Of a DNA stretch of 64,000 nucleotides, positions 33,955 to 60,443 are shown piece by piece. Every line of letters starts with the position of its first letter. Position 1 is the stretch's first letter. This DNA comes from Brevibacillus panacihumi W25 (GTDB lineage Bacteria > Bacillota > Bacilli > Brevibacillales > Brevibacillaceae): the NCBI RefSeq assembly GCF_000503775.1, contig NZ_KI629782.1, positions 2,233,579 to 2,297,578 on the forward strand. The letters are read 5' to 3'. The notes below the pieces were generated by a model that made no database searches, was not told the DNA's origin, and was given only the letters and a program-made list of their open reading frames with translations. Both the position numbers and the translations under genes were made by a program.

Positions 33955-34158
33955 GAGGAAAAAGGAGAGAACGCTTAGGCGGGTTGGGATCTTCGCTGGG
34001 GGCCGACTTGTCCGTCTCCACTCCAAAGGCGGAACCGCGGCCAAAAGCAGCCAGTTCGAAGAAGTTGTACAGGGTTGGCCGCTGAATGCTTGTTCCGCCT
34101 TTTCCGTTACGCCTGGGTCAAGATCCCAAATGCCTTCGCTCTTCTCTCCTTTTTCCTC
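33955..34158. repeat. Structured ~205-bp element, copy 1
   Basis: Nested inverted repeats: 15-bp outer stem (33955-33969 with 34144-34158), 10-bp stem TTGGGATCTT/AAGATCCCAA (33984-33993 with 34120-34129), 11-bp stem AAAGGCGGAAC/GTTCCGCCTTT (34025-34035 with 34092-34102) and GCGGCC/GGCCGC (34037-34042 with 34077-34082). A second copy is at 57301-57509 in the same orientation. No consistent protein frame is kept between copies. Identity unknown; the transcribed strand is not determined. Confidence 0.85.
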
Positions 34159-57300: not shown

Positions 57301-57509
57301 GAGGAAAAAGAAGAAAACACTCCAGGCCGGTTGGGATCTTTGCTGGGGGTCATTCCTGGCCGCCTCCCACTCCAAAGGCGGAACCGCGGCCAAAAGCAGC
57401 CGATTCGAAGAAGCGGTTTCAAGGTTGTCCGCTAAAAGCGTGTTCCGCCTTTTCCGTTCCGGCTGAGTCAAGATCCCAAAAGCCTTGCGCTTTTTTCTTC
57501 TTTTTCCTC
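57301..57509. repeat. Structured ~205-bp element, copy 2
   Basis: Same architecture as copy 1: outer stem 17 bp (57301-57317 with 57493-57509), TTGGGATCTT/AAGATCCCAA (57331-57340 with 57470-57479), and AAAGGCGGAAC/GTTCCGCCTTT (57374-57384 with 57442-57452). A 35-bp block (57367-57401) is identical to 34018-34052. Outer-stem bases differ from copy 1 on both arms in a pairing-preserving way. Upstream of rnjA on the minus strand. No promoter assigned. Confidence 0.85.
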
Positions 57510-58914: not shown

Positions 58915-58941
58915 TGTGATAACAATCAGAAAAAAGTTGTT

Positions 58942-60443
<1,502 letters not shown>

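What the first reader, a model, noticed from the sequence alone, without database searches (positions are those of the whole stretch)
33955..34158. Two-copy structured element with co-varying stems: candidate undescribed RNA or mobile palindrome
The sequence at 33955-34158 and a second copy at 57301-57509 share a 35-bp identical block (34018-34052 and 57367-57401), two further invariant stems and a TTCGAAGAAG stretch. They have diverged elsewhere. In the outermost stem copy 1 has G at positions 11 and 15 where copy 2 has A, and the opposite arms have C and T at the paired sites: two compensatory changes. A still more distal stem also changes in step (GTGAGG/CCTCAC in copy 1, GTGGAG/CTCCAC in copy 2). 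Three nested long-range stems occupy the whole unit. No protein frame is conserved between the copies. Selection on base pairing, rather than chance or coding, explains this best. I know of no named RNA family with this layout.
Basis: partly seen in the sequence, partly recalled or inferred. Interest (0 to 1): 0.88.

Follow-up and report, generated by a model that had tools for sequence, protein, structure and literature searches.

The report
Brevibacillus-wide dispersed long-palindrome repeat
The two similar sequences belong to a large family of 200-base folding repeats scattered through Brevibacillus genomes, which other mobile elements use as landing sites; whether the folded form that matters is DNA or RNA is still open.

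Summary
The window's genome holds 49 near-full copies, at least 10 split by a group II intron, and several deletion derivatives. A covariance model finds the family in 23 of 26 Brevibacillus genomes; a DNA search found none in 16 genomes of other families. No Rfam family matches. Covariation is strong: outer-stem arms fit their own partner far better than another copy's. They do not exclude RNA on the reverse strand. Copies have a fixed polarity to replication (45 of 49) and often lie just past an intrinsic terminator (28 of 49). Stems are conserved at fixed places. A group II intron enters one apical point, and an IS110-family element abuts one point at the stem base in five copies. Best reading: a new ERIC/bcr1-like family of non-autonomous palindromic repeats, probably acting as a DNA hairpin. 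The mover is unknown, and no clean empty site was found.

The parts
33957..34156 (+). copy 1 core (model R1 hit G000:C1:2267535-2267734)
   Evidence: cmsearch 226.7 bits
57303..57507 (+). copy 2 core (model R1 hit G000:C1:2290881-2291085)
   Evidence: cmsearch 215 bits
33955..33971 (+). copy 1 outer stem, 5' arm
   Evidence: fold; covariation over the family
34142..34158 (+). copy 1 outer stem, 3' arm
   Evidence: fold; covariation over the family
57301..57317 (+). copy 2 outer stem, 5' arm
   Evidence: fold
57493..57509 (+). copy 2 outer stem, 3' arm
   Evidence: fold
33984..33993 (+). copy 1 second stem (H2), 5' arm TTGGGATCTT
34120..34129 (+). copy 1 second stem (H2), 3' arm AAGATCCCAA
34025..34035 (+). 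copy 1 inner stem (H3), 5' arm AAAGGCGGAAC
34092..34102 (+). copy 1 inner stem (H3), 3' arm GTTCCGCCTTT
34037..34044 (+). copy 1 apical stem (H4), 5' arm GCGGCCAA
   Evidence: GCGGCC/GGCCGC is GCGTCC/GGACGC in other species
34075..34082 (+). copy 1 apical stem (H4), 3' arm TTGGCCGC
34041..34077 (+). apical module CCAAAAGCAGCC...CAGGGTTG, also seen inside a repeat with different stems (L151)
34075..34076 (.). point that corresponds to the group II intron insertion in at least 10 other copies (this copy is uninterrupted); ambiguous by about one base
   Evidence: junctions in L141-L150
34018..34052 (+). 35-bp block identical to 57367-57401

Best explanation
It is a dispersed, apparently non-coding long-palindrome repeat (a rod of about 200 bp with weaker conserved ends), a genus-specific, non-autonomous mobile-type element of the ERIC/bcr1 kind. 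Shown: high copy number at different chromosomal places, presence/absence between close species, compensated stem changes, polarity to replication, position after terminators, constraint on stems of resident copies, and fixed points where a group II intron and an IS110-family element sit. Inferred: the reverse strand, which lies on the lagging-strand template, folds into the rod when that template is single-stranded; an enzyme not identified here acts on that DNA hairpin to copy or insert it; pairing is selected because the hairpin is what is recognised. The identity as a dispersed palindromic repeat is held at 0.6; the DNA-hairpin step alone at about 0.35.
For: Copies: 49 near-full hits of 158 bits or more in the window's genome, plus split and deleted ones; 23 of 26 genus genomes. 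Copies at C1:2267535 and C1:1621990 are 95% identical. The place of C1:1621990 has 26 bp instead of 314 bp in B. panacihumi JCM 15085. Covariation: matched against mismatched outer arms 13.8 vs 9.15 bp over 43 copies. Polarity: 45 of 49 copies have the + strand on the negative-GC-skew strand, against 247 of 360 ORFs of 450 nt or more on the leading strand (binomial p 1e-4). Copies with an opposing neighbour gene still follow replication, 8 of 8 on one side and 9 of 10 on the other (tallied). Terminator facing the element on the right: 28 of 49, against 12, 6 and 7 for the other side-and-sense combinations. Against RNA on the + strand: G-U 26, A-C 50 in the element, 11 and 3 in SRP RNA, same method, Fisher p 0.003.
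Against: No clean empty site with a target-site duplication: copy 1's place in JCM 15085 is a wholly different intergenic region, the 26-bp site may be a deletion, and C1:1643429 is an internal deletion there. No autonomous partner was seen (positions only), and Y1 transposases do not follow copy number. The matched wobble count leans 50 to 26 towards the reverse strand and does not differ from SRP RNA on that strand (p 0.54), so RNA from the gene-sense strand is not excluded; a replication mutation bias could give the same lean. A different count over the whole rod leans the other way (G-U 67, A-C 44 on the + strand). Slow stem evolution in place would also fit a host function or an RNA. In six other genomes polarity is 24 of 30 clusters, not above a gene-like 75% (p 0.35).
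Confidence: 0.6

Rival explanations
1. A structured non-coding RNA or UTR element, made from the reverse strand (the strand co-oriented with most neighbouring genes), present in many paralogous copies downstream of terminators or in leaders.
For: Stable folds on both strands; covariation in several nested helices; matched wobble count leans to the reverse strand, 50 to 26, not different from SRP RNA (p 0.54; by distinct events 36 to 22, p 0.09); stem sites change in 25 of 1720 cases against 120 of 2381 in the rest of the core; reverse strand co-oriented with the nearest ORF in 41 of 49 (one side) and 39 of 49 (other side) copies.
Against: No Rfam match; tens of copies, deletion derivatives and loss between close species are unusual for an RNA gene; the whole-rod count leans to the other strand; strand-biased mutation could give the lean. 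No RNA data were available.
Confidence: 0.3
2. A host-serving DNA site, like BIMEs in enterobacteria: the hairpin or cruciform binds a nucleoid, topoisomerase or replication protein past transcription units and with fixed polarity to the fork.
For: Polarity, place past terminators, constraint on resident copies.
Against: 3 of 26 genus genomes have no match and 2 have three weak or few ones; copies are lost or internally deleted between close species; no binding protein is known.
Confidence: 0.22
3. A dead repeat whose arms are kept alike only by template switching between the arms at stalled forks, without selection.
For: Compensated changes are many compared with one-sided ones between copies (outer stem 129 compensated, 7 G-U, 15 A-C, 18 other).
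Against: Within 20 orthologous copies at 4.4% flank divergence there is no compensated double change among 860 stem pairs, and 23 one-sided ones.
Confidence: 0.08

Closest known systems
ERIC (enterobacterial repetitive intergenic consensus)
   Same: One long stem-loop of roughly 100-140 bp, tens of copies or more; [quoted passage not shown]
   Different: No sequence link was tested. Here about 200 bp with nested helices, in Brevibacillus, with measured polarity and landing points. Details of ERIC mobility are recalled, not from a call.
bcr1 of the Bacillus cereus group
   Same: Firmicute repeat of 147-167 bp with 12-31 copies and a conserved structure (table rows in PMC2267715).
   Different: Other genus; no sequence comparison made. 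Its target-site duplication is recalled, and none was found here.
REP/BIME repeats with REP-specific IS elements
   Same: Intergenic palindromes used as targets by particular insertion sequences (PMC1525189, abstract seen); here an IS110-family element abuts 5 copies at one point.
   Different: REPs are 20-40 bp (PMC4666352, passage); this rod is 200 bp. No Y1 transposase correlation.
IS200/IS605-type single-strand DNA elements
   Same: Lagging-strand polarity and DNA hairpins (property of that family recalled).
   Different: 10 of 26 genomes have no Y1 transposase match, among them copy-rich G042, G012, G013 and G014; one rod, not two small end hairpins.

Membership tests
Known Rfam RNA family | cmscan match at gathering score | tested here: not met
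   Only a SAM riboswitch elsewhere in the window; best matches to copy 1 at E 2.2-4.2, far below gathering scores
Structured ncRNA | one-sided helix changes prefer G-U over A-C on the strand that is the RNA | tested here: inconclusive
   + strand: not met (G-U 26, A-C 50; SRP 11, 3; p 0.003). Reverse strand: 50 to 26, like SRP (p 0.54). Whole-rod count leans the other way
Structured ncRNA | strand-specific transcript | not testable with these tools
   no RNA data
ERIC/bcr1-like dispersed palindromic repeat | many copies outside genes, taxon-restricted | tested here: met
   0 of 16 genomes of other families by DNA search. 'Outside genes' rests on a simple ORF scan, in which a longer ORF overlaps 13 of 49 copies
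ERIC/bcr1-like dispersed palindromic repeat | long imperfect stem-loop shared by copies | tested here: met
MITE | clean empty site with target-site duplication | tested here: inconclusive
MITE | autonomous element with the same ends | tested here: inconclusive
   56 pattern hits in the own genome (41 forward, 15 reverse); judged by position only
IS200/IS605-derived (REP/PATE) | Y1 transposase present where copies are many | tested here: not met
   16 of 26 genomes have a match; several copy-rich ones have none
IS200/IS605-derived (REP/PATE) | lagging-strand polarity | tested here: met
   45 of 49 by local GC skew; weaker in six other genomes (24 of 30)

The most novel reading that the evidence does not exclude
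A superfamily of replication-polarised DNA hairpin elements: rods of differing stem sequence built around one conserved apical module (CAAAAGCAGCC...CAGGGTTG), propagated as single-stranded DNA on the lagging-strand template by an unrecognised enzyme that reads the folded DNA.
Probability: 0.17. Interest if true: 0.78.

Novelty: new variant of a known kind. Interest (0 to 1): 0.48.

Why it matters
Covariation is usually taken as proof of RNA, yet here it sits in a high-copy palindrome with a fixed polarity to replication, so DNA-level and RNA-level selection on pairing can be told apart by experiment. The repeat is also a genus-wide landing site for a group II intron and an IS110-family element, and its mover is unknown.

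Tried and rejected
Known Rfam RNA: rejected. Larger transposon flanked by the repeat: the second-tier model hits about 2-3 kb apart turned out to be single copies split by a group II intron. Y1/RAYT transposase as the mover: no correlation. Phage or plasmid origin: no match in either collection (records near the window's genome may be left out). Template-switch correction: disfavoured. Intrastrand triplex (the outer arms are purine/pyrimidine-rich; PMC4666352, abstract and passages): considered, not tested. 'DNA, not RNA' as a firm claim: I first inferred it (SRP 17 compensated, 35 G-U, 3 A-C; outer stem 129, 7, 15), but that control was folded with G-U allowed, which favours G-U columns. With the same G-U-free folding for both the contrast remains only for the + strand. 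I therefore lowered the DNA step, raised the RNA rival from 0.2 to 0.3, lowered the host-site rival from 0.25 to 0.22, the novel case from 0.22 to 0.17, and interest from 0.5 to 0.48. Counts not relied on: searches (R1's inner stem is shifted by one register, giving false G-U pairs; few cells, and its 'own' set held rows of other species), and the H4 row (some rows picked a neighbouring stem). Literature searches listed no paper whose title or abstract start describes this repeat; only open-licence papers are held, lists were capped, and most hits were seen only as listings.

Full report
Observation. Copy 1 (33955-34158) and copy 2 (57301-57509) are as described: an exact 35-bp shared block, nested stems, and two compensated differences in the outer stem. 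Both strands of both copies fold better than all 200 shuffles. Rfam gives nothing at the gathering score except a SAM riboswitch at 58940-59051, and only weak matches to copy 1 otherwise.

How many copies. A DNA search of the window's own genome (5.55 Mb, 11 contigs) gave 41 matches with 40 of 114 candidates scored. A covariance model (R1, 202 positions, from 30 of those copies) gave 104 matches with 150 of 2328 candidates scored; many are the two strands of one place. Forty-nine places score 158 bits or more. Of the weaker hits, 10 are copies split by a group II intron of about 1.95 kb (Rfam RF02003 and RF00029 in the seven loci scanned; reverse transcriptase plus maturase domains). An eleventh at C4:1161928 has the same reading frame beside it. 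Others are internally deleted copies of 53-99 nt or a truncated one. In the genus, 23 of 26 genomes have matches (95 candidates scored in each, so counts are floors). A DNA search matched 19 of 41 genomes, all 19 in the same genus, and none of the 16 in other families. An exact 27-base core pattern in the named genome collection hit 37 stretches, all Brevibacillus panacihumi JCM 15085; records very near the window's genome may be hidden there.

Covariation. Across 124 distinct rows the outer stem changes by compensated substitutions, transversions included (GGAAACAGGAG/CTCCTGTTTCC, AAGCAG/CTGCTT, AATGGG/CCCATT). Arms match their own partner (mean 13.8 bp) far better than another copy's (9.15; 0 of 200 shuffles as high) over 43 of 49 copies; five copies next to an insertion sequence and one poorly aligned copy were left out.

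RNA or DNA. If RNA pairing on one strand were selected, G-U should be tolerated on that strand and A-C not. A first comparison looked decisive: SRP RNA, a rod found once in each of 26 genus genomes, gave 17 compensated, 35 G-U, 3 A-C, 7 other departures (22 distinct rows), and the repeat's outer stem 129, 7, 15, 18 (61 distinct arm pairs). But SRP had been folded with G-U allowed. With a G-U-free fold for both, SRP gives G-U 11, A-C 3. The element read on the + strand gives G-U 11, A-C 21 in the own genome (48 rows) and 15, 29 in other genomes (72 rows). So the + strand is unlike an RNA (26:50 against 11:3, p 0.003), while the reverse strand (50:26) is not distinguishable from SRP (p 0.54). 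Counted once per pair column and type, the lean is 36 to 22 (p 0.09). Rows share ancestry. A strand-biased mutation pressure, expected since nearly all copies have one polarity to replication, could cause the same lean. A per-sequence whole-rod count leans the other way (67 to 44), and helices taken singly are near even (G-U/A-C 2/6, 13/12, 7/7; arms there were chosen by Watson-Crick score). I conclude that RNA on the strand as written is unlikely, and that reverse-strand RNA and DNA hairpin both remain.

Evolution in place. Twenty copies have a collinear orthologue among the JCM 15085 loci held. Flanks differ at 1958 of 44830 sites (4.4%), the non-stem core at 120 of 2381 (5.0%), stem sites at 25 of 1720 (1.5%: 23 one-sided changes and one uncompensated double change). 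No compensated double change was seen in 860 pairs. So stems are constrained at fixed places, and rapid arm-to-arm correction is not evident.

Place and polarity. In 45 of 49 copies the + strand is the strand with negative local GC skew, the lagging sense. By a simple ORF scan, 247 of 360 ORFs of 450 nt or more in 44 regions are on the leading strand, so the bias exceeds gene bias (p 1e-4). In copies whose neighbouring ORF runs the other way the element still follows replication (8 of 8 and 9 of 10, tallied). In six other genomes, with origins placed near the contig start or from the SRP gene, 24 of 30 clusters taken from the capped lists agree (p 7e-4 against one half, 0.35 against 75%); single clusters in G012, G014 and G018 and one 37-bp match in G001 were left out. 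An intrinsic terminator pointing at the element was found on the right side in 28 of 49 copies, against 12, 6 and 7 for the other three side-and-sense combinations. The element thus tends to lie past the terminator of the preceding transcription unit.

Landing site. The 10 printed left junctions and 8 printed right junctions of intron-bearing copies fall at one point of the apical loop. Aligned intron parts are 99.3-100% identical. JCM 15085 has uninterrupted copies collinear on both sides at L143 (two in tandem), L144 and L145; at L141 it has no intron, but only the left half and apical part of the repeat. The intron insertions are therefore recent. Five copies have the same IS110-family element (PF01548, PF02371 for the one scanned) abutting the outer stem at one point. 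Insertion sequences that target REPs are known (PMC1525189, abstract).

Mobility. Two copies at different places are 95% identical. In JCM 15085 the place of C1:1621990 holds 26 bp instead of 314, copy 1's place is a different intergenic region, C1:1643429 is an internal deletion, and C5:597946 and C4:455633 are shared. No target-site duplication is proven. No autonomous relative was seen by position, and Y1 transposases are absent from several copy-rich genomes.

Second family. L151 carries nested palindromes with other arms but the same apical module. Arms of a similar type, with the marker TTTCCAGNCGNAGCGACT, occur in 18 of 291 held loci; L151 itself lacks that marker, and whether these are one family was not tested. 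The apical module may be the part that is recognised (inference).

Verdict. A new, genus-wide family of long-palindrome repeats of the ERIC/bcr1 kind (PMC2267715, passages), unusual in its covariation, its polarity to replication and its double use as a landing site. The mover is unknown; a DNA hairpin is my choice, a reverse-strand RNA or a host site the main rivals.

Noticed in passing
L151:1344-1539 and 1774-1971: Repeats with different palindromic arms but the same apical module as the finding.
   Followed up: partly
L037, L039, L040 and others: Further palindromic repeat with arms around TTTCCAG..CG.AGCGACT beside copies of the finding; marker in 18 of 291 held loci.
   Followed up: no
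L141-L150, L164:5440-6783: Group II intron inserted at one point of the repeat, aligned parts 99.3-100% identical, absent from JCM 15085 at the four places compared.
   Followed up: partly
G000 C1:1139000, C1:2093212, C4:1161678, C5:640103, C6:46723: IS110-family element abutting the outer stem at the same point in five copies.
   Followed up: partly
L232:573-2178: Five tandem copies at 351-352-bp spacing in G001.
   Followed up: no
L032, L120, L121, L122, L132, L241, L245: Inverted pairs of the repeat, 110-335 bp apart.
   Followed up: no
window 58940-59051: SAM riboswitch.
   Followed up: no
L143:2077-2211: c-di-AMP riboswitch near an intron-split copy.
   Followed up: no
L152-L155, L157: Internally deleted mini-hairpins of 53-99 nt that keep the ends of both arms.
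   Followed up: no
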